This document shows, piece after piece, positions 2 through 21,534 of a stretch of DNA of 27,815 bases. Where the stretch lies: assembly GCA_016281295.1 (NCBI GenBank), contig JAEEII010000110.1, forward strand, positions 1-27,815. The letters are read 5' to 3'. Each line of letters starts with the position of its first letter. Within the stretch, counting starts at the first letter, position 1. The position numbers and the translations under genes were made by a program. This stretch comes from Bacteroidales bacterium. Its GTDB lineage: Bacteria > Bacteroidota > Bacteroidia > Bacteroidales > F082. A model generated the notes under the pieces. That model searched no databases, was not told the DNA's origin, and saw only the letters and a program-made list of their open reading frames with translations.

Positions 2-664
2 GATGGAAGTTACCTTGGTTGTGATTCTTTGGTGGTTCTCCATTTGACGATAGAGCCGGTGCTTCAGGGCGACACCACGATGATCACTTGTGAGCCTTTC
101 AACTGGTACGGCCAGCTCTGTGATACCACAGGTGACTATACTCATGTTTTCGAGGATGCCAGCTATCTTGGTTGTGACTCCATCGTGATGCTCCATTTGA
201 CAGTGCTCCCCGTTGTTCCAGGTGACACCACGGTAATCACCTGCGAGCCGTTCGAGTGGTATGATGACCTCTATTCCGAGTCCGGTGACTATTCCCACAC
301 CTTTGAGGATGCCAGCTACTTAGGCTGCGACTCCATTGTGACACTCCACCTGACCATAGAGCCGGTACCTCAAGGTGACACCACGGTGGTGGTGGGAGTC
401 CCGTTTGAATGGTACGGCGAGACCTATTCCGTGTCTGGAGATTATCCTCACACCTTCATTGATGCCAGTTATTTAGGCTGCGACTCCACGGTGATGCTCC
501 ACTTGTCAGTGCTTCCTGTTATCCCGGGCGACACCACAGTGATTACCTGCGAGCCGTTCGAGTGGTATGATAACCTCTATTCCGAATCGGGTGATTATTC
601 CCACACTATTGTGGATGGAAGTTACCTTGGTTGTGATTCTTTGGTGGTTCTCCATTTGACGATA
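2..664 (+). repeat. N-terminal block of 153-bp (51-aa) modules
   Basis: One partial and four full 153-bp modules encode units with a PGDTTVITCEPFEWY segment and an LGCDS core. Neighbouring modules alternate between two linker types (TIEPVxQ and VLPVxP), giving a 306-bp higher-order period. Bases 2-53 are identical to 614-665, an offset of exactly four modules, which points to block duplication. The third full module has lost its first cysteine (VVVGVPF where others read VITCEPF). Confidence 0.85.
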
Positions 665-3600
665 GGAGAGACCCAATACGCCTACGAGTACGACACCATA
701 TCTATGGAAGACCTCCCGTTCGATTGGCACGGCCAGGAATGCCTGACAACAGGCCTCTACTATGACACGCTCCAGACGTGGTTGGGTTGCGATTCCATCG
801 TCACCTTGGATCTGTTGGTGACAGGTTATGAGTTTACCCATGTGTACGACACCATCTGCGAAACAAATACCCCGTACGAATGGCACAACCAGGAACTTTA
901 CCTGACCGGCCAATACTATGACACCATCCCAGGCCAGCTCGGTATCGACACCATAGCGGTTCTCCATCTGATCGTGGGCGAGACCCAATACGCCTACGAG
1001 TACGACACCATATCTATGGAAGACCTCCCGTATGAATGGCACGGCCAAGAGTGCCTCGCTTCAGGCCTCTACTACGACACACTCCAAACCTGGTTGGGCT
1101 GCGACTCCATCGTCACGTTGGATCTCTTGGTGACAGGTTATGAGTTTACCCATGTGTACGACACCATCTGCGAAACAAATACCCCGTACGAATGGCACAA
1201 CCAGGAGCTTTATCTGACAGGCCAATACTTTGACACCATCCCGGGCCAGCTTGGTATTGATACCATCGCCGTCCTCCATCTGATGGTTGGCGAGACTCAA
1301 TACACATACGAGTACGACACCATTTCGATGGATGACATTCCGTTTGAGTGGCATGGCCAAGAGTGCCTCGCTTCAGGCCTTTACTATGACACGCTCCAGA
1401 CCTGGTTGGGCTGCGACTCGATTGTCACTTTGGATCTGTTGGTGACAGGTTATGAGTTCACCCATGTGTACGACACCATCTGCGAAACGGATACCCCGTA
1501 CGAATGGCATGACCAAGAACTTTACCTGACCGGCCAATACTATGATACCATCCCTGGTCAGCTTGGTATCGACACCATCGCTGTCCTCCATCTGACGGTG
1601 GGCGAGACCCAGTACTTCCAGGAGTTCGACACCATTTCGATAGAAGACCTCCCGTTCGATTGGCATGGCCAGGAATGCCTCGCTACAGGCCTCTATTACG
1701 ACACGCTCCAGACCTGGCTGGGCTGTGACTCCATCGTCACCTTGGATCTGTTGGTGACAGGCTATGAATTCGCCCATGAGCACGACACCATTTGCGACAC
1801 AAATACTCCATACGAGTGGCACGACCAAGAGCTTTATTTGACAGGCCAGTATTACGACACCATTCCTGGCCAGCTCGGTATCGACACCATAGCGGTTCTC
1901 CATCTGATCGTGGGCGAGACCCAATACACTTACGAGTACGACACCATTTCGATGGATGATATTCCGTTCGATTGGCATGGCCAAGAGTGCCTCGCTTCAG
2001 GCCTCTATTACGACACGCTCCAAACCTCACTGGGCTGCGACTCCATCGTCACGTTGGATCTCTTGGTGACGGGTTATGAGTTCACCCATGTGTACGACAC
2101 TATCTGCGACAAGGATACGCCAATCACTTGGCACGACCAAGTAATCAACCTGACTGGTCAATACTATGACACCATCCCAGGTACACTCGGTATCGACACC
2201 ATCGCTGTCCTCCATCTGACCGTGGGTGAGACCCAATACTCTTACGAGTACGACACCATTTCGATGGATGATATTCCGTTCGAGTGGCATGGCCAAGAAT
2301 GCCTGACTTCAGGCCTCTACTATGACACGCTCCAGACCTGGTTAGGCTGCGATTCCATCGTTACCTTGGATCTGTTGGTGACGGGCTATGAGTTCGCCCA
2401 CGAGTACGACACCATCTGCGACACTAATACCCCGTACGAGTGGCATGACCAGGAGCTTTACCTGACGGGTCAGTATTACGACACCATTCCAGGCTCCGAA
2501 GGCTTCGACACCATCGCCGTTCTCCATCTGACGGTTGGCGAGACCCAGTACGGCTACGAATTCGACACCATATCTATGGACGACCTCCCGTTCGATTGGC
2601 ACGGCCAGGAGTGCCTGACTTCAGGCCTTTACTATGACACGCTCCAGACCTGGCTGGGCTGTGACTCCATCGTCACCTTGGATCTGTTGGTGACGGGCTA
2701 TGAGTTCGCCCACGAGTACGACACCATCTGCGACACGAATACCCCGTACGAATGGCATAATCAGGAGCTTTATCTGACGGGTCAGTATTACGACACCATT
2801 CCAGGCTCCGAAGGCTTCGACACCATCGCCGTTCTCCATCTGATAGTGGGCGACACCCAATACACATACGAGTACGACACCATTTCCATGGCTGACATCC
2901 CATTTGAATGGCACGGCCAGGAATGCCTCGCTTCAGGCCTCTACTATGACACGCTCCAGACCTGGTTAGGCTGCGACTCTATCATTACCCTGGATCTGTT
3001 GGTGACAGGTTATGAGTTCGCCCACGAGTACGACACCATCTGCGAAACGGATTCCCCGTACGAATGGCACGACCAAGAGCTTTATTTGACAGGCCAGTAT
3101 TACGACACCATTCCAGGCTCCGAAGGCATCGACACCATCGCTGTCCTCCATCTGATAGTGGGCGAGACCCAATACGCCTACGAATATGACACCATTTCGA
3201 TGGATGACATTCCGTTTGATTGGCATGGCCAGGAGTGCCTCGCTTCAGGCCTCTACTATGACACGCTCCAGACCTGGTTAGGTTGCGACTCGATTGTCAC
3301 GCTTGATCTGTTGGTGACCAGCTATGAATTCGCTCATGTGTACGACACCATCTGCGAAACGGATACCCCGTACGAATGGCACGACCAAGAGCTTTATCTG
3401 ACCGGCCAATACTATGACACCATCCCAGGTCTCACTGGCATCGACACCATCGCCGTTCTCCATCTGACCGTTGGCGAGACCCAATACGGCTACGAATATG
3501 ACACCGTGTCGATGGCTGATATCCCGTTCGAGTGGCACGGCCAGGAATGCCTCGCTTCAGGCCTCTACTATGACACGCTCCAGACCTGGTTGGGCTGCGA

Positions 3601-6166
3601 CTCGATTGTCACGCTTGATCTGTTGGTGACAAGTTATGAGTTCACCCATGTGTATGATACCATCTGCGAAACAGATACCCCGTATGAATGGCATGACCAA
3701 GAGCTTTACTTGACCGGCCAGTACTATGACACCATCCCAGGTCTCACTGGCATCGACACTATCGCCGTTCTCCATCTGATAGTGGGCGAGACCCAATACA
3801 CATACGAGTACGACACCATTTCGATGGCTGACATCCCGTTCGAGTGGCACGGCCAAGAGTGCCTGACAACAGGCCTTTACTACGACACACTCCAGACCTG
3901 GTTGGGCTGCGACTCCATTGTCACGCTTGATCTGTTGGTGACAAGCTATGAGTTCGCCCACGAGTACGACACTATCTGCGAAACGGATACCCCGTATGAG
4001 TGGCATGACCAAGAGCTTTACTTGACTGGCCAGTACTATGACACCATCCCAGGTCTCACTGGCATCGACACCATCGCCGTTCTCCATCTGACCGTTGGCG
4101 AGACCCAATACACATACGAGTACGACACCATTTCGATGGCTGACATCCCGTTCGAGTGGCACGGCCAAGAGTGCCTGACAACAGGCCTTTACTACGACAC
4201 ACTCCAGACCTGGCTGGGCTGCGACTCCATTGTCACGCTTGATCTGTTGGTGACAAACTATGAATTCACCCATGTGTATGATACCATCTGCGATACGGAT
4301 ACCCCGTACGAATGGCATGACCAAGAGCTTTACTTGACCGGCCAGTATTACGACACGATTCCAGGTTCCGAAGGCATCGACACTATCGCTGTCCTCCATC
4401 TGACAGTGGGCGAGATCCAATACGGCTACGAATATGACACCGTGTCGATGGCTGACATTCCGTATGAATGGCACGGCCAGGAATGCCTCGCTTCAGGCCT
4501 CTATTACGACACACTCCAGACCTGGCTGGGCTGCGACTCGATTGTCACGCTGGATCTGTTGGTGACAGGCTTTGAATTCGTCCACGAGTACGACACCATC
4601 TGCGACACAGATACGCCAATCACCTGGCACGACTGCCTGCTCGACACCACTGGCCTTTACTATGATACTATCCCTGGCTCCACTGGTATTGACACCATCA
4701 CAGTGCTTCACCTGACCGTGGGCGAAACCCAATATGCATACGAGTTCGATACCATCTCTATCGATGATACCCCGTTCCTGTGGCATGACTACCTCTGCGA
4801 TACCTCAGGCCTCTATATCGATACCCTCCAAACTGCCCTCGGCTGCGACTCCATCATCTCATTGTCCCTGCTGGTGACAGTTCATGAATTCGTCCACGAA
4901 TACGACACCATCTGCGACTCGGATGCGCCTTACCATTGGCATGACCAAGATTATTCCCTGACTGGCCAATATTACGACACCATCCCAGGCCCTGTAGGCC
5001 TCGATACCATTGCAGTCCTGCATCTCACCGTGGGTGAAACCCAATGGCACCATGAATTTGACACCATCTCTGAACGCCTGCTGCCTTACGAATGGCATAA
5101 CCAACAGTGTATGATGTCAAACCTCTATCACGACACCCTCCAAACCGCCCTCGGCTGCGACTCTATCATAACCCTTCACCTTCAGGTGATTGACTATACC
5201 TACGCTCATGAATATGATACCGTGTGCGAATCTGACCTGCCTGTCATCTGGCATGGGCAGCTCTGTGATCAAACGATACCTTATTATGATACAATCATCA
5301 GCTCTACCCCCTTCGACACCATCGCTATCCTTCACCTGACCATCGAACAACCTTATTATGATACCCTCACCATCACCGCCTGCGACTTTTATCAATGGCA
5401 TGGCAATATATATACCCATAGCGATGTCTATGAATGCTCCGTGCCTGGACCAGTGTGCGATAGTACCTTCGTGCTCAATTTGACCATCGTCGAAAAGTAT
5501 TATGACACCCTGAACATCATGGCCTGCGACGACTTCGAGTGGAACAATAACCTCTATCAGTATTCTGGACAATACACTGATACACTCTCCTCACAACATG
5601 GCTGCGATAGCATCGTCACCCTGAATCTTACAGTCATTAATCCGCAACTGGAAATCTTAGGTTATAATAATGTGTATTATTCATCAGATATATGGCATGG
5701 TATATATCATTATTATGTTGTTGATTCCACTTATTCCTATCTGGATTCCATTGAATGGCAGTGTACAAACCCCGATTGGATTGTGACTCCTATCAATAAT
5801 TTCCATTGTATGGTGATCTTCAAAACCATGGGTACCGGAACCTTGACCGCACATCCTACCAACCTTTATGGATGCGATGACCTCCTCTCCATCGATATCA
5901 ACGCTACAGAGTTTAATGATCATACTGGAGAAGTGCCTGAGGTGATACTGTATCCGAATCCGTCTCGTGGCGATGTCACCGTGAAAGCACCTCACTTGAT
6001 TAAAGTACGGGTGCTCTCTGCCCTGGGTCAGCTTTTGAAGGAGATTCCGCTTGAACATAATGACAGCACCACCATCACCATCGAGTCAATGTCTTGTGGC
6101 TTCTACTTGGTGGAGGTCGTCACTTCAAATGGTATTTTCATGGAACGTCTAATTATCTCGAAATGA
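2..6166 (+). CDS. Giant repeat-built surface protein with T9SS sorting domain (5' partial)
   Basis: The reading frame is open from base 2 to a TGA at 6164-6166. The start and signal peptide lie outside the window: bases 2-53 already encode the end of a repeat module. About 2,054 residues are visible, in four parts. First are 51-residue modules (to 664). Next come fifteen 104-residue double modules (665-5344). Two more divergent single modules follow (about 5345-5646), then a non-repeat beta-rich stretch. The last ~78 residues (from about 5930) carry the YPNPSRG motif and a LSALGQLL segment, as in type A C-terminal sorting domains of T9SS cargo. By family knowledge such domains direct export through the outer membrane and surface attachment or release. 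Modules are rich in Asp, Thr, Tyr and Trp-His, with a recurring LGCDSIVTL core, so an extended adhesin-like stalk is inferred. No enzymatic domain is visible. Its stop overlaps the next gene by four bases. The ligand is unknown. Confidence 0.9.
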   Translation, partial: DGSYLGCDSLVVLHLTIEPVLQGDTTMITCEPFNWYGQLCDTTGDYTHVFEDASYLGCDSIVMLHLTVLPVVPGDTTVITCEPFEWYDDLYSESGDYSHTFEDASYLGCDSIVTLHLTIEPVPQGDTTVVVGVPFEWYGETYSVSGDYPHTFIDASYLGCDSTVMLHLSVLPVIPGDTTVITCEPFEWYDNLYSESGDYSHTIVDGSYLGCDSLVVLHLTIGETQYAYEYDTISMEDLPFDWHGQECLTTGLYYDTLQTWLGCDSIVTLDLLVTGYEFTHVYDTICETNTPYEWHNQELYLTGQYYDTIPGQLGIDTIAVLHLIVGETQYAYEYDTISMEDLPYEWHGQECLASGLYYDTLQTWLGCDSIVTLDLLVTGYEFTHVYDTICETNTPYEWHNQELYLTGQYFDTIPGQLGIDTIAVLHLMVGETQYTYEYDTISMDDIPFEWHGQECLASGLYYDTLQTWLGCDSIVTLDLLVTGYEFTHVYDTICETDTPYEWHDQELYLTGQYYDTIPGQLGIDTIAVLHLTVGETQYFQEFDTISIEDLPFDWHGQECLATGLYYDTLQTWLGCDSIVTLDLLVTGYEFAHEHDTICDTNTPYEWHDQELYLTGQYYDTIPGQLGIDTIAVLHLIVGETQYTYEYDTISMDDIPFDWHGQECLASGLYYDTLQTSLGCDSIVTLDLLVTGYEFTHVYDTICDKDTPITWHDQVINLTGQYYDTIPGTLGIDTIAVLHLTVGETQYSYEYDTISMDDIPFEWHGQECLTSGLYYDTLQTWLGCDSIVTLDLLVTGYEFAHEYDTICDTNTPYEWHDQELYLTGQYYDTIPGSEGFDTIAVLHLTVGETQYGYEFDTISMDDLPFDWHGQECLTSGLYYDTLQTWLGCDSIVTLDLLVTGYEFAHEYDTICDTNTPYEWHNQELYLTGQYYDTIPGSEGFDTIAVLHLIVGDTQYTYEYDTISMADIPFEWHGQECLASGLYYDTLQTWLGCDSIITLDLLVTGYEFAHEYDTICETDSPYEWHDQELYLTGQYYDTIPGSEGIDTIAVLHLIVGETQYAYEYDTISMDDIPFDWHGQECLASGLYYDTLQTWLGCDSIVTLDLLVTSYEFAHVYDTICETDTPYEWHDQELYLTGQYYDTIPGLTGIDTIAVLHLTVGETQYGYEYDTVSMADIPFEWHGQECLASGLYYDTLQTWLGCDSIVTLDLLVTSYEFTHVYDTICETDTPYEWHDQELYLTGQYYDTIPGLTGIDTIAVLHLIVGETQYTYEYDTISMADIPFEWHGQECLTTGLYYDTLQTWLGCDSIVTLDLLVTSYEFAHEYDTICETDTPYEWHDQELYLTGQYYDTIPGLTGIDTIAVLHLTVGETQYTYEYDTISMADIPFEWHGQECLTTGLYYDTLQTWLGCDSIVTLDLLVTNYEFTHVYDTICDTDTPYEWHDQELYLTGQYYDTIPGSEGIDTIAVLHLTVGEIQYGYEYDTVSMADIPYEWHGQECLASGLYYDTLQTWLGCDSIVTLDLLVTGFEFVHEYDTICDTDTPITWHDCLLDTTGLYYDTIPGSTGIDTITVLHLTVGETQYAYEFDTISIDDTPFLWHDYLCDTSGLYIDTLQTALGCDSIISLSLLVTVHEFVHEYDTICDSDAPYHWHDQDYSLTGQYYDTIPGPVGLDTIAVLHLTVGETQWHHEFDTISERLLPYEWHNQQCMMSNLYHDTLQTALGCDSIITLHLQVIDYTYAHEYDTVCESDLPVIWHGQLCDQTIPYYDTIISSTPFDTIAILHLTIEQPYYDTLTITACDFYQWHGNIYTHSDVYECSVPGPVCDSTFVLNLTIVEKYYDTLNIMACDDFEWNNNLYQYSGQYTDTLSSQHGCDSIVTLNLTVINPQLEILGYNNVYYSSDIWHGIYHYYVVDSTYSYLDSIEWQCTNPDWIVTPINNFHCMVIFKTMGTGTLTAHPTNLYGCDDLLSIDINATEFNDHTGEVPEVILYPNPSRGDVTVKAPHLIKVRVLSALGQLLKEIPLEHNDSTTITIESMSCGFYLVEVVTSNGIFMERLIISK
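665..5344 (+). repeat. Fifteen tandem 312-bp (104-aa) double modules
   Basis: The segment GETQ or a close variant starts a unit every 312 bases (665, 977, 1289 and so on to 5033) with no insertion or deletion in 15 copies, so 4,680 bp is exactly 15 x 312. Each unit is an A module of 53 residues (GETQ...HGQEC...LGCDSIVTLDLLVT) and a B module of 51 residues (GYEF...DTIC...YEWH...GIDTIAVLHL). Central copies are near-identical in DNA; the last two are clearly more divergent. Confidence 0.93.
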
Positions 6167-6813
6167 AAAAGTGGTTCTATATAGTTCTTTTTGTTGGTTG
6201 GCTTCTCGGTCTTGCGGGTTGTTCAATCCCACCAGATGAAACCATCATCTTCGTGGGTCCTGAGTCGTATATCACCCCACTCGATGAAATGATTCCCGAT
6301 GCTTGGCAGTCTTCTTTCTTCTCCAACTTCGACTCTCTTCCTCAAGGTTACTATCCTCCGAATATTGAAGGTGAGTATCGAATCAGTAAAAAGCAGTTCT
6401 GCACGTCCAATCTGGGTTACGACCTCTCCGATTCTTTAGATATGTATTTGAGGGTTGTCAACCAAGACAATCGTTTGGCGAGTGTGCAGTTTTTCGAGGG
6501 AGGGACGGTTTGGACAGATACAGCCTTCATCACCGGAAACGATCCTTGGTTTAGTTTGTATTTCAAAGAAAAAAGAGCGCTGGTGTCATACGGGACCACC
6601 CATACCCATCGGCGTTTTGTGCTTTTCACAGGAAGGAAGTCGGAAGAAGGCATCCATGACCTGTATTTCGGCACTGTGATTTTGGGCGCCGATAATGGTG
6701 ATGACCCTTACGTGGGGGCTTTTATCCCAGGATGGTATTTCATTTACAAAGATCAAGACGGCTTGTCTGAGAACAGCGATTGGTTTAGCCATGAGGAGGA
6801 TGAGGATGAATAG
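6163..6813 (+). CDS. Uncharacterised lipoprotein coupled to the giant surface protein
   Basis: This encodes 216 residues. The ATG at 6163 overlaps the upstream TGA (ATGA), and starting here gives a clean lipoprotein signal peptide: MKK, a hydrophobic run, then LAGC with the lipidated Cys at residue 20. An upstream in-frame extension to 6094 would bury that signal, so it was rejected. The mature part has many aromatic residues and beta-prone segments and ends in an acidic tail (HEEDEDE). I recognise no family. The acidic Ser-Ile-Pro-Pro-Asp-Glu start after the Cys could favour surface exposure, since Bacteroidetes surface lipoproteins often carry acidic residues there; this is inference. Position suggests a partner of the giant protein, perhaps in its attachment. 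Confidence 0.8.
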   Translation: MKKWFYIVLFVGWLLGLAGCSIPPDETIIFVGPESYITPLDEMIPDAWQSSFFSNFDSLPQGYYPPNIEGEYRISKKQFCTSNLGYDLSDSLDMYLRVVNQDNRLASVQFFEGGTVWTDTAFITGNDPWFSLYFKEKRALVSYGTTHTHRRFVLFTGRKSEEGIHDLYFGTVILGADNGDDPYVGAFIPGWYFIYKDQDGLSENSDWFSHEEDEDE

Positions 6814-7591
6814 AAGACTTGTCATATTGGGTTTGCTGCTCTCGCTGTCGGTCTCGCTGATGGCACAGAAACACTTTCTGCCTTCCCGTCCCCGCAATGA
6901 CGCTGCATTGTACGAAGGACCTGTCTATGGGGTGAAGGGGGGACTTAATTTGCCAAGGTTGTATCACACGGATCCACAGCTGAATCAAATCCCTCATGAT
7001 TTTGTGTATTCCCCTTCAGTAAGCGTCTTTGTCGAGTTTCCATTCCTGCGTCCCTGCACCGTCGCGCCTGAGCTGAACTATCAACGCAAAGGAGGCTCTT
7101 TCTCCTATTTCTTTAATGGCCAGCACAAAGAAACGTATTCGCTTTTTGCCGATTATGTCTTGTTCCGATGCCCGGTCTTTTTTTACACGCCAATCTCCGA
7201 CCGTGTGAAACCCTATCTCTTTCTCGGTCCTGACCTGGGTTTCGCCTTCAAGGGTGACATTGCCTTATCACACCCCGACCATGACCTTCCCGACCATTCT
7301 GTTGGCATCAACTATTCCAATTACAACTATCTCTATTTAGGTGCGTTAGGTGGAGTGGGTGTCAGGTTCAATCTTCCTTTAACCTTGATTACCTTTGTGA
7401 TAAAGGTAGATGCGGCGGTTAACTGGGGCTTTCTCGACACTTATTCCAAACATGAGCATATAGGAATAGCGATCCCCCAGAATGTGGATGTGTACCACTT
7501 GCAGGGGAATCGCTATTTAAGAGGCTTGGAAGTCCATTTAAGTCTCGGCTATTTTATCAATAAGCCTGACGCTTGTGGTATCTTCCAATAA
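6806..7591 (+). CDS. Outer-membrane beta-barrel protein (PorT-like / OMP_b-brl type)
   Basis: This encodes 261 residues from ATG 6806. An AGGAGG sits at 6794-6799, six bases before this start, and the gene overlaps the end of the lipoprotein gene by eight bases. In-frame ATGs at 6791 and 6800 are less well placed relative to that site. The N-terminus is a signal peptide (MNRRLVILGLLLSLSVSLMAQ). The rest alternates short amphipathic beta strands, for example YGVKGGLNL, VAPELNYQRKGGSF, VKPYLFLGPDLGFAF and YLGALGGVGVRFNL, as in the small Bacteroidetes barrel family with PorT-like members. It probably sits in the outer membrane. Overlap with both upstream genes suggests it works with the giant T9SS cargo, as SprF-type proteins do for SprB-type adhesins, although it does not look like a PorP/SprF homologue. 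Confidence 0.8.
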   Translation: MNRRLVILGLLLSLSVSLMAQKHFLPSRPRNDAALYEGPVYGVKGGLNLPRLYHTDPQLNQIPHDFVYSPSVSVFVEFPFLRPCTVAPELNYQRKGGSFSYFFNGQHKETYSLFADYVLFRCPVFFYTPISDRVKPYLFLGPDLGFAFKGDIALSHPDHDLPDHSVGINYSNYNYLYLGALGGVGVRFNLPLTLITFVIKVDAAVNWGFLDTYSKHEHIGIAIPQNVDVYHLQGNRYLRGLEVHLSLGYFINKPDACGIFQ

Positions 7592-11677: not shown

Positions 11678-11712
11678 ATGAATTGTTTTTTTTCTTTTTT
11701 CATGATAAGTAT

Positions 11713-11720
11713 TATCTTTG
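11713..11720 (+). promoter_or_regulatory. Candidate -7 box for the SAM hydrolase gene
   Basis: TATCTTTG matches TAnnTTTG and would give a leader of roughly 20-25 bases before ATG 11750. It sits back to back with the phoH box, so both genes appear to be driven from one ~100-bp divergent region. Confidence 0.55.
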
Positions 11721-11749
11721 CATTCCAAACACATTTTATTTATAATAGG

Positions 11750-12529
11750 ATGGCTATTATCACGTTGACAAGCGATTGGGGGACCTCCGATTATTATGCG
11801 GCAGCTGTGAAAGGTGTGATTTTGTCACAAATGCCCAATGTCACCATTGTGGACATCACACATGATATCGCGCCTTTCAACATCGCTCAGGCGGGTTTCA
11901 CTTTGCGTAATTGTTACCGTAACTTCCCGGAAGGAACCATCCATATCATTGCGGTGGAGACTATCGAGTCAGATGTCAATCCCCATGTGGTGGTGAAAGC
12001 GCATGGACAGTATTTTATCTCCACCGACAACGGGATCTTCAGCCATATCTTCGACAACGACTATGAAGAGGCAGTGTTTATCGATGTGGAACAGGACACT
12101 GACTTCTTTACTTTCAGCACCCGTGACCGCTTTGCCAAGGTTGCCGTCATGATCGCCCAAGGTGTGCCGCTGTCTAACATCGGTGCGCGACGCGAACGCC
12201 TCAACGATGGGGGCACGTTCTGTGCCATCGTCAAGAAAGACATCATCGAAGGCATCGTCATCCATATCGACTCCTACGACAACCTCATCACCAACATTCC
12301 TAAGGAGTTGTTCGACGAGGTTGGACAGGGACGTGACTTCACCATCAAGGTCAAAGGCGACCTTTATATCATCGAGGAGATCTCTGAGAGCTACGACGAT
12401 GTGGATCATCTCGACCCCGTGGCGCTCTTCGGCACCCACGGCTACCTCGAAATCGCCCTCAACCATGCCAAGATGGCGTCACTTTGGGGCATCGAGCTTC
12501 GCTCCACCATCCAGGTGGTTTTCCATTAA
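11750..12529 (+). CDS. SAM hydrolase / SAM hydroxide adenosyltransferase (DUF62 family)
   Basis: This encodes 259 residues. Family members split S-adenosylmethionine to adenosine and methionine using a water-derived hydroxide. The N-terminus ITLTSDWGTSDYYAAAVKG, the VDITHDIAPFNIAQAGFTL block and the ISTDNGIFSHIF segment are diagnostic of DUF62. The C-terminal beta-barrel region is present and the length is normal. The ATG at 11750 begins at the conserved family N-terminus and follows the -7 box; an upstream in-frame start at 11678 would lie before that box. The gene stands alone and diverges from phoH. Its physiological role in Bacteroidetes is not established. Confidence 0.9.
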   Translation: MAIITLTSDWGTSDYYAAAVKGVILSQMPNVTIVDITHDIAPFNIAQAGFTLRNCYRNFPEGTIHIIAVETIESDVNPHVVVKAHGQYFISTDNGIFSHIFDNDYEEAVFIDVEQDTDFFTFSTRDRFAKVAVMIAQGVPLSNIGARRERLNDGGTFCAIVKKDIIEGIVIHIDSYDNLITNIPKELFDEVGQGRDFTIKVKGDLYIIEEISESYDDVDHLDPVALFGTHGYLEIALNHAKMASLWGIELRSTIQVVFH

Positions 12530-20202: not shown

Positions 20203-20233
20203 TTTGTACTTAAGTTTTTAATCTTTATTTTTG
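20203..20233 (+). promoter_or_regulatory. Promoter of the TMEM43-like gene
   Basis: TTTG at 20203-20206, exactly 19 bases, then TATTTTTG at 20226-20233: a textbook Bacteroidetes -33/-7 pair. The predicted leader is about 55 bases. It abuts the divergent metallopeptidase box. Confidence 0.65.
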
Positions 20234-20296
20234 CTTTTTGATATTTATACCTGATATCATCGAGTAATGTTGAATAATTTTAAATAAATATGTAAA

Positions 20297-21514
20297 ATGG
20301 CTTATCAAGAAACAAACAGAACATCCTACGGGAAAAATGTAGGGAACTCTTTCAAAGGGATTCTCACGGGACTGGTGATGGTGATTGTCGCCACCATCCT
20401 GATTTTTTGGAATGAAAACCGTGCGATTAAGAACTATAAGGCTATCGGGCGTGCTCAGGATGCATGTGTGGAAATGCCTGACATCAACACAGTATCCCCT
20501 GATTTTGAGGGCAAGACGGTGCATTGCACGGGTGTGGCTTCCACCAAAGAAATGCTTTCTGACGAGAACTTCGGTGTTCGGGTCAACGGTCTCTGCCTGA
20601 AACGTCAGGTGGAATACTTCCAGTGGGTGGAGCATTCCAAGACTACCACGAAAGAGAAAATCGGTGGCGCTACCGAGGAGACCACTACTTATACCTACGA
20701 AAAAGAATGGGTGTCCTCGCCACAAGCGAGTTCCAAGTTCAAGGATCCTACCTATCAAAACCGTAATTTTGTGTATCAGGTCATCGACGAAAAAGAGATG
20801 GTGCCTGATATCATCAGCTTCGGAGCGTACAAACTCCCTCCGTTCATCGCAGCTTCCATCCGCGGTAACGAGCCAGCAATGGTCGAGATGGACAGCGCCA
20901 CGTTGCGTCAGTGGAACAGTGCTGTCAAGGCTCAGCTCGGCCTTTCTGACACCATCAACGCAAATTACCTTACGGTGCGTGATAACGTGGTTTATATAGG
21001 CTCCAGCATGGATAAACCTGATGTGGGTGATGTCCGCGTGACCTTCACATACGTGCCAAACGACCAACAGATTTCCATCATCGCCAACGTCACCGGTAAC
21101 ACCTTCACCCAGTATGTTGACCAAAGAAACGGGAAGACCGTCTCTTCCGTGGCCATGGGAACAGTGCCTGCCGAGCAGATGTTCGAGTCGCTGAAGAAAA
21201 ACAACAAGATGATCACCTGGATCATCCGTCTGGTCATTCTCATCATCATCATCGCTGGCTTCCGTAAGATTTTCGCTTTTGTCCCCACCCTCCTCAAGGT
21301 GTTGCCTTTCTTGGGCAAAGGCGTTGGAGCCATCTTGGGCTTCGCCTGCACTATCATCGGCATTGCCTGGACCTTCCTCTTTATTGGCATTGCCTGGATT
21401 GCTGTGCGTCCTGTACTCGGTATCTCTCTGCTTGTTGCGGTCATCGCCCTCATCGTATGGCTTGTCATGCGCAGTAAGAAAGCTGGAGGTGGAGAATTGA
21501 AAACTGAGAACTGA
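20297..21514 (+). CDS. TMEM43 family membrane protein
   Basis: This encodes 405 residues. A transmembrane helix near residues 22-39 (ILTGLVMVIVATILIFW) precedes a large extracytoplasmic domain with VSPDFEGKTVHCTGVAS and the KRQVEYFQWVE segment typical of the TMEM43/LUMA family. Four hydrophobic segments form the C-terminus (about 295-395). Bacterial members are of unknown function; the human homologue is an inner nuclear membrane protein. The final residues (GGGELKTEN) come from spacer-like DNA rich in AACTGAGA words. A longer antisense frame covers this gene but has no family features. Confidence 0.9.
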   Translation: MAYQETNRTSYGKNVGNSFKGILTGLVMVIVATILIFWNENRAIKNYKAIGRAQDACVEMPDINTVSPDFEGKTVHCTGVASTKEMLSDENFGVRVNGLCLKRQVEYFQWVEHSKTTTKEKIGGATEETTTYTYEKEWVSSPQASSKFKDPTYQNRNFVYQVIDEKEMVPDIISFGAYKLPPFIAASIRGNEPAMVEMDSATLRQWNSAVKAQLGLSDTINANYLTVRDNVVYIGSSMDKPDVGDVRVTFTYVPNDQQISIIANVTGNTFTQYVDQRNGKTVSSVAMGTVPAEQMFESLKKNNKMITWIIRLVILIIIIAGFRKIFAFVPTLLKVLPFLGKGVGAILGFACTIIGIAWTFLFIGIAWIAVRPVLGISLLVAVIALIVWLVMRSKKAGGGELKTEN

Positions 21515-21534
21515 GAACACGTTGCCCGCTCCCT

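What the first reader, a model, noticed from the sequence alone, without database searches (positions are those of the whole stretch)
2..7591. Coupled trio: giant T9SS cargo, lipoprotein, beta-barrel
The stop of the repeat protein overlaps the lipoprotein start (ATGA), and the lipoprotein gene overlaps the barrel gene by eight bases. Such coupling suggests fixed stoichiometry and joint function. SprB-type adhesins need SprF-type partners, but neither downstream protein looks like PorP/SprF. This may be an undescribed cargo-specific export or anchoring pair. It is the strongest candidate here for a new system.
Basis: partly seen in the sequence, partly recalled or inferred. Interest (0 to 1): 0.72.

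Follow-up and report, generated by a model that had tools for sequence, protein, structure and literature searches.

The report
Secreted adhesin with two membrane partners
A very large protein that gut bacteria appear to export to their surface is encoded together with two outer-membrane proteins, a lipoprotein of an unnamed family and a small barrel; the same trio recurs in related bacteria and may hold the exported protein at the cell surface.

Summary
Window 2-6166 (open at the 5' edge) encodes a repeat protein with a T9SS type A sorting domain. A lipoprotein gene (6163-6813) overlaps its stop by 4 nt, and a beta-barrel gene (6806-7591) overlaps the lipoprotein gene by 8 nt.

The trio recurs. 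With the lipoprotein as bait, 18 of 18 genome loci have the barrel next door. In the 69 lipoprotein genes tabulated, 44 of 48 with a short barrel have a sorting-domain cargo within 1.5 kb, against 1 of 5 with an OmpA-type barrel and 0 of 16 with no barrel detected. Other controls: 0 of 28 other PF13568 barrels; 33 of 624 background genes have a cargo directly upstream.

The barrel is PF13568, 8-stranded, not PorP/SprF and not PorT. The window lipoprotein matches no Pfam or NCBIfam family. One correction: the cargo is type A, not SprB-like type B; the papers I saw describe linked partner genes for type B.

Most likely the pair retains its cargo at the outer membrane after export through Sov/PorV. 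That is inferred, not shown. Against it: pairs without cargo, and a weak surface-export signal.

The parts
2..6166 (+). T9SS type A cargo, repeat protein of at least 2054 aa (5' end outside the window)
   Evidence: open frame; tandem repeats; Por_Secre_tail
647..5045 (+). main repeat array of the cargo, 312-nt unit x 14.1
   Evidence: TRF
5948..6157 (+). type A C-terminal sorting domain (aa 1983-2052 of the frame)
   Evidence: PF18962 1.5e-7, TIGR04183 2.9e-7, 5.2e-9 on the isolated tail
6163..6813 (+). lipoprotein (216 aa) of an unnamed family; lipobox Cys20 at 6220-6222; beta meander predicted
   Evidence: sequence; Cys20 invariant in 23 of 23 and 26 of 26 aligned rows; 0 Pfam and NCBIfam families at E<=1; model pLDDT 85.9
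6739..6771 (+). conserved C-terminal lipoprotein motif F-I-Y-K-D-x-D-G-L-S-E
   Evidence: alignments
6806..7591 (+). outer-membrane beta-barrel (261 aa): signal peptide, then 8 long strands, OmpA/OprF-like
7568..7576 (+). D-A-C stub after the last strand, where cousin barrels continue towards an OmpA domain
   Evidence: C257 invariant in A2 and A4; tails of the short barrels

Best explanation
The three genes form one module: a large adhesin-like type A T9SS cargo plus a dedicated outer-membrane pair, made of a lipoprotein of an unnamed family and a small 8-stranded barrel. Proposed mechanism: the cargo crosses the outer membrane through Sov/SprA with PorV like other type A cargo, and the lipoprotein-barrel complex then captures it and retains it on the cell surface. 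This would parallel PorP/SprF with PorE for type B cargo but use unrelated proteins. Shown: gene order and its conservation, family assignments, correlated divergence, predicted folds. Inferred: that lipoprotein and barrel form a complex, that it binds the cargo, and that the role is retention.
For: Lipoprotein as only bait: barrel adjacent in 18 of 18 genome loci. Sorting-domain cargo within 1.5 kb of 44 of 48 lipoprotein + short-barrel pairs, 40 of 48 upstream on the same strand. Controls: 0 of 28 other PF13568 barrels of the same genomes (some of these stretches are cut short by contig ends); 0 of 16 lipoproteins with no barrel detected; 33 of 624 background genes with a cargo directly upstream. 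Independent domain test: 35 of 36 tails submitted hit TIGR04183 (5 of the 41 lipoproteins then in hand were not submitted, see Tried and rejected). Distances over 40 sets: lipoprotein/barrel r 0.89, lipoprotein/CTD 0.61, barrel/CTD 0.64, each 0 of 2000 permutations as high. PorV-family genes in 18 of 18 genomes. The barrel model has 8 long strands, the PorV/PorP shuttles 14 (PMC9143113, passage). The C-terminal basic residue of the signal is kept in 28 of 35 module cargos (by eye). Cousin barrels carry an OmpA domain (Pfam in 2 of 2 tested), which suggests an outer-membrane complex with a cell-wall link in that branch.
Against: One pair has no cargo although its surroundings are known (L125). 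4 of 5 OmpA-type pairs and 16 of 16 lipoproteins with no barrel detected have none within 1.5 kb, so the lipoprotein family has other uses. Strict surface-export signal in 1 of 26 lipoproteins, so it may face the periplasm. Correlated distances can come from shared descent alone. Loci are related, so counts are not independent. No interaction, expression or localisation data.
Confidence: 0.5

Rival explanations
1. The pair is a cargo-specific export shuttle for type A cargo that replaces PorV at the Sov translocon, as SprF does for type B cargo.
For: Same gene logic as type B cargo followed by its shuttle gene (PMC12618676, passages). 7 of 35 module CTDs have a non-basic residue at the motif-E position that is K or R in 40 of 40 background CTDs (Fisher p 0.003, by eye).
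Against: 28 of 35 keep the basic residue, and at least 3 of the 37 other CTDs in the module loci, left out of that test, also lack it. The barrel has 8 long strands against 14 in the known shuttles. PorV-family genes are in 18 of 18 genomes.
Confidence: 0.17
2. The pair works on the periplasmic side: it holds, folds or licenses a very long repeat protein before export.
For: Strict surface-export motif in only 1 of 26 lipoproteins. A conserved Cys after the last strand of nearly every short barrel, on the side that is periplasmic in OmpA (recalled).
Against: Cargo length is not always extreme (453 aa in L002). No known chaperone fold seen in the lipoprotein model.
Confidence: 0.15
3. The pair is a functionally separate surface receptor, for example for a small ligand, that shares the operon because it acts in the same habitat as the adhesin.
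Against: Cargo linkage is largely confined to the short-barrel pairs and is found in several old clades of the lipoprotein tree. Cargo content varies (PKD, IgGFc-binding, repeats), which fits a generic cargo handler better than one shared ligand.
Confidence: 0.13

Closest known systems
SprB-SprF and other type B cargo with cognate PorP/SprF shuttle (Flavobacterium johnsoniae)
   Same: T9SS cargo gene closely followed by a gene for an outer-membrane barrel; several paralogous sets in one genome
   Different: The cargo here has a type A signal; the barrel is an 8-stranded PF13568 protein, not a 14-stranded FadL-type one; a lipoprotein gene lies between cargo and barrel
PG1035-PorP-PorE (Porphyromonas gingivalis)
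   Same: cargo + outer-membrane barrel + OM-associated lipoprotein, proposed as a surface anchor (PMC9143113, passages)
   Different: Type B cargo; PorE has TPR, propeller and OmpA-like domains, this lipoprotein has no such Pfam match
PorZ-PorQ
   Same: A type A CTD that is retained and bound by a PorV-like barrel (PMC10202324, passage)
   Different: Part of the T9SS attachment complex; PorQ is PorV-like; no direct comparison was made here
PF13568 OMP_b-brl_2 barrels, including PorT/SprT and NF049866 (TDE1717 family)
   Same: The barrel is a PF13568 member; 21 of 25 rows of A4 also match NF049866 at E<=1 (best 6.2e-14)
   Different: Not PorT: NF052311 matches 6 of 25 rows, best E 0.0074, and not the window barrel. 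The one NF049866 score seen is far below cutoff (26.8 bits against 135). 0 of 28 other PF13568 barrels tested have the cargo and lipoprotein neighbours

Membership tests
T9SS type A cargo | C-terminal TIGR04183/PF18962 domain above cutoff | tested here: met
   window: 30.3 bits (cutoff 23) and 32 bits (cutoff 27); 35 of 36 submitted upstream tails at E<=0.01
T9SS type B cargo (SprB-type) | TIGR04131/PF13585 C-terminal domain | tested here: not met
   not among the matches of the window cargo nor among the families listed for the 36 tails
PorP/SprF | TIGR03519 / PorP family match, 14-stranded FadL-type barrel | tested here: not met
   no match at E<=1 for the window barrel nor among families listed for 25 rows of A4; 8 long strands in the model; over-cutoff PorP matches in 16 of 18 genomes lie at other places
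PorT/SprT (T9SS component) | NF052311 equivalog match | tested here: not met
   window barrel no match; 6 of 25 rows of A4, best E 0.0074
PF13568 outer-membrane beta-barrel | Pfam match above gathering score, 8-stranded barrel | tested here: met
Lipoprotein (Sec/SPII) | short signal peptide ending in a lipobox Cys | tested here: met
   Cys20 invariant in 23 of 23 and 26 of 26 rows; judged by eye, no SPII predictor was available
Surface-exposed lipoprotein (LES) | C-X-K-(D/E)2 after the lipid Cys | tested here: inconclusive
   strict motif 1 of 26; K plus two acids 11 of 26; two acids in +2 to +7 19 of 26; the motif was defined in Capnocytophaga and differs in other Bacteroidota (PMC5080379, passages)
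PorE-like cell-wall anchor | OmpA-like peptidoglycan-binding domain in the lipoprotein | tested here: not met
   no Pfam hit in the window lipoprotein; no OmpA among the families listed for 26 rows of A3
Calycin (lipocalin/avidin) fold of the lipoprotein | clear structural match to a solved calycin | tested here: inconclusive

The most novel reading that the evidence does not exclude
A new class of T9SS partner: some type A cargos have their own encoded outer-membrane receptor (unnamed lipoprotein family + OmpA-type barrel) that decides where the cargo ends up, so cargo fate in these Bacteroidales is set by dedicated pairs and not by PorV and the sortase alone. In part of the family the pair may even take the place of PorV.
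Probability: 0.35. Interest if true: 0.8.

Novelty: new variant of a known kind. Interest (0 to 1): 0.62.

Why it matters
[quoted passage not shown] A conserved, multi-copy, cargo-linked pair for type A cargo would suggest how a few large adhesins, among the 73 to 150 or more sorting-domain matches per genome (11 in one genome), are sent to a fixed place on the surface, and gives a sequence handle to test it. The window lipoprotein has no Pfam or NCBIfam match, 26 aligned family members have no Pfam match better than E 0.03, and the profile finds 436 proteins at E<=1e-5.

Tried and rejected
Rejected: PorP/SprF and PorT identity of the barrel. Hits of the repeat protein to GP41, sigma-70, NuoB and the like: 0 stretches pass on their own, so taken as artefacts of the repeats. 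The idea that the lipoprotein family tracks T9SS presence: SprA is in 27 of 28 genomes that carry the family, but also in 370 of 393 genomes of the order, so it says nothing. Surface export by LES: strict motif 1 of 26. PorV bypass through loss of the motif-E lysine: only 7 of 35 lack a basic residue, so kept as a lead. Sequence relatives in the PDB: none at E<=1 for either profile.

Rows and limits; 36 tails were submitted for the 41 lipoproteins then in hand; left out were L012 (prolyl-tRNA ligase-like gene upstream, named by eye), L039 (contig end), the second pair of L055 (a barrel upstream), L054 and L057 (no barrel detected, no cargo upstream); 54 matches, some of them two pieces of one gene; 11 weaker places (E 4e-7 to 9e-4) were not fetched; comparing places, at least 5 of the 11 have a PF13568 match within about 0.7 kb; their cargo was not checked. 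One search scored only 7 candidates per genome, so 27 of 393 is a lower bound. Table: L101 (frame broken) was left out; L092, L094-L100, L102-L110, L113, L114 and L116 were replaced by longer versions L118-L137; L115 duplicates L042. 'No barrel detected' means none by my profile at E 1e-3; in L119, L127 and L057 a neighbouring secreted protein could be an undetected barrel. In L137 a sorting-domain frame lies 1.66 kb away, just outside the limit. L138-L143 (6 of 395 genomes of the phylum) were not examined; 30 best-scoring PF13568 loci by allotment, two of them module barrels; about five stretches are shorter than the full flanks; 4 of 28 control picks look like a wrong frame, so its counts (Cys in the last 45 aa 7 of 28, C-x-x-W/F 2 of 28) are rough. 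Cys in the last 45 aa in 48 of 49 short barrels, C-x-x-W/F in 39 of 49; the miss is an unpaired second barrel in L118, and in L093 the Cys lies inside the last strand. The CTD profile was trained on module CTDs; TIGR04183 is independent of that. Background stretches were picked by me on contigs that mostly hold module loci, not at random. Gene calls in scripts are crude longest-frame calls.

Literature: nothing describing such a type A cargo-lipoprotein-barrel set showed in the listings of searches (open-licence PMC papers only) or in the passages read.
Full report
WHAT IS THERE. The window starts inside a long open frame (2-6166, +) that encodes at least 2054 aa with a tandem array (312-nt unit x 14.1) and ends in a T9SS sorting domain (PF18962 32 bits, TIGR04183 30.3 bits). 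Its stop overlaps the start of a 216-aa lipoprotein as ATGA (6163-6166), and the lipoprotein gene overlaps the barrel gene by 8 nt (6806-6813). Downstream and convergent lies an S46 dipeptidyl-peptidase gene, then purC and phoH-like genes. What lies 5' of the window is unknown; no whole genome is held for it.

THE PAIR IS CONSERVED. Single-sequence searches gave 24 lipoprotein and 28 barrel relatives; a later profile search gave 436 lipoprotein-family proteins at E<=1e-5. A genome scan with the lipoprotein alignment as the only bait returned 18 loci, by title all Bacteroidales or Bacteroidia (one titled Prevotella, one Candidatus Limimorpha), several from buffalo, yak or red deer samples. In 18 of 18 a homologue of the window barrel, found with a separate profile, is adjacent; by my choice of starts the gaps run from about -14 to +21 nt. 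The 4-nt overlap of cargo stop and lipoprotein start recurs in L001, L003, L004, L006, L007, L008 and L010.

THE CARGO IS CONSERVED TOO. Of 36 C-terminal tails submitted from genes upstream of a lipoprotein (41 lipoproteins in hand, 5 left out as told under Tried and rejected), 35 match TIGR04183; the odd one is alanine-tRNA ligase in L044, where a cargo with a sorting domain lies convergent about 12 nt after the barrel. The 18 genomes hold 1 to 5 lipoprotein matches each. I fetched 20 regions around further copies: a barrel of this family is adjacent in 18 of 20. Together with relatives among 393 genomes of the order (27 positive; longer stretches) this gives 69 lipoprotein genes. 48 lie beside a short barrel: 44 of these have a cargo within 1.5 kb, 40 upstream on the same strand. 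5 lie beside a barrel with a C-terminal OmpA domain (Pfam in the 2 tested; from the sequence ends in the other three): 1 of 5 has a cargo, on the opposite strand. 16 have no barrel detected: 0 of 16. Of the four short-barrel exceptions, L012 and L134 have a cargo-like frame cut by the contig end beside the barrel (no sorting domain can be seen there), L039 begins within about 560 nt of a contig end, and L125 is a true negative.

CONTROLS. Of 30 PF13568 barrels from the same 18 genomes, two are module barrels and none of the other 28 has a lipoprotein-family gene or a sorting domain in its stretch of up to 1.5 kb each side. In 790 kb of other sequence from these genomes (40 stretches picked by me), 663 crude genes include 40 cargos; 33 of 624 genes have a cargo as the immediate upstream same-strand gene, and no lipoprotein or module barrel was found. 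Fisher tests: 7e-17 against the other barrels, 1e-11 against solitary lipoproteins, 3e-36 against background; as loci are related these are descriptive. On the lipoprotein tree (66 rows) the cargo label needs 5 changes against a shuffled mean of 18.7. Over 40 sets, lipoprotein and barrel distances correlate at r 0.89, and with the CTD at 0.61 and 0.64; shared descent alone could give this. T9SS presence is uninformative: SprA is in 370 of 393 genomes of the order.

HOW IT MOST LIKELY WORKS. From the passages seen: type A cargo is carried from SprA by PorV and then released or linked to LPS; type B cargo has cognate PorP/SprF shuttles, usually encoded next door, in some cases with PorE as wall anchor (PMC12618676 abstract and passages; PMC9143113 passages; PMC10994853 passages; PMC10202324 passages and one section). 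The module has the type B gene logic but a type A signal, a small barrel and an unnamed lipoprotein. PorV is present, most module CTDs keep the basic motif-E residue (28 of 35; background 40 of 40, by eye), and the barrel is unlike the 14-stranded shuttles, so I favour retention at the outer membrane after export over export itself. The weak surface signal of the lipoprotein leaves a periplasmic role open.

VERDICT. The coupling is real and belongs to a recurring, multi-copy module in T9SS-rich Bacteroidales. I saw no description of it in the searches listed. Function is inferred, with about even odds for the anchoring model.

Noticed in passing
window 7568-7576; tails of the short barrels: Nearly invariant Cys in a D-A-C stub after the last barrel strand, often C-x-x-W/F (39 of 49), where cousin barrels continue towards an OmpA domain; possible disulphide or docking site.
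   Followed up: partly
L118, L120, L121, L122, L126: The lipoprotein family also pairs with a PF13568 barrel fused to an OmpA domain, mostly without T9SS cargo; in L122 and L126, and in the barrel-less L119, L123 and L133, the lipoprotein domain is part of a longer protein.
   Followed up: partly
L043, L055: Tandem copies: two trios in L043, and two lipoprotein-barrel pairs between cargos in L055.
   Followed up: no
L013, L014, L016-L018, L040-L042, L058: A second cargo gene stands upstream of the first, mostly with a different sorting-domain subtype, so one lipoprotein-barrel pair may serve two cargos.
   Followed up: partly
module CTDs L004, L005, L010, L015, L049, L050, L053: The usually basic motif-E residue near the C-terminus is H, Q, L or I in 7 of 35 module cargos and in 0 of 40 background cargos (by eye).
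   Followed up: partly
L127-L133, L135, L136: Lipoproteins of the same family without a detected barrel, most with a C-terminal I-Y-D-x-D-G motif, in other genomes of the order; function unknown.
   Followed up: no
window 11678-12529: SAM hydrolase/fluorinase-superfamily protein (NF058624 1.7e-24, below cutoff).
   Followed up: no
window 20297-21514: 405-aa ORF without an NCBIfam match at E<=1e-5, overlapped by a long antisense frame (20225-21520, -).
   Followed up: no
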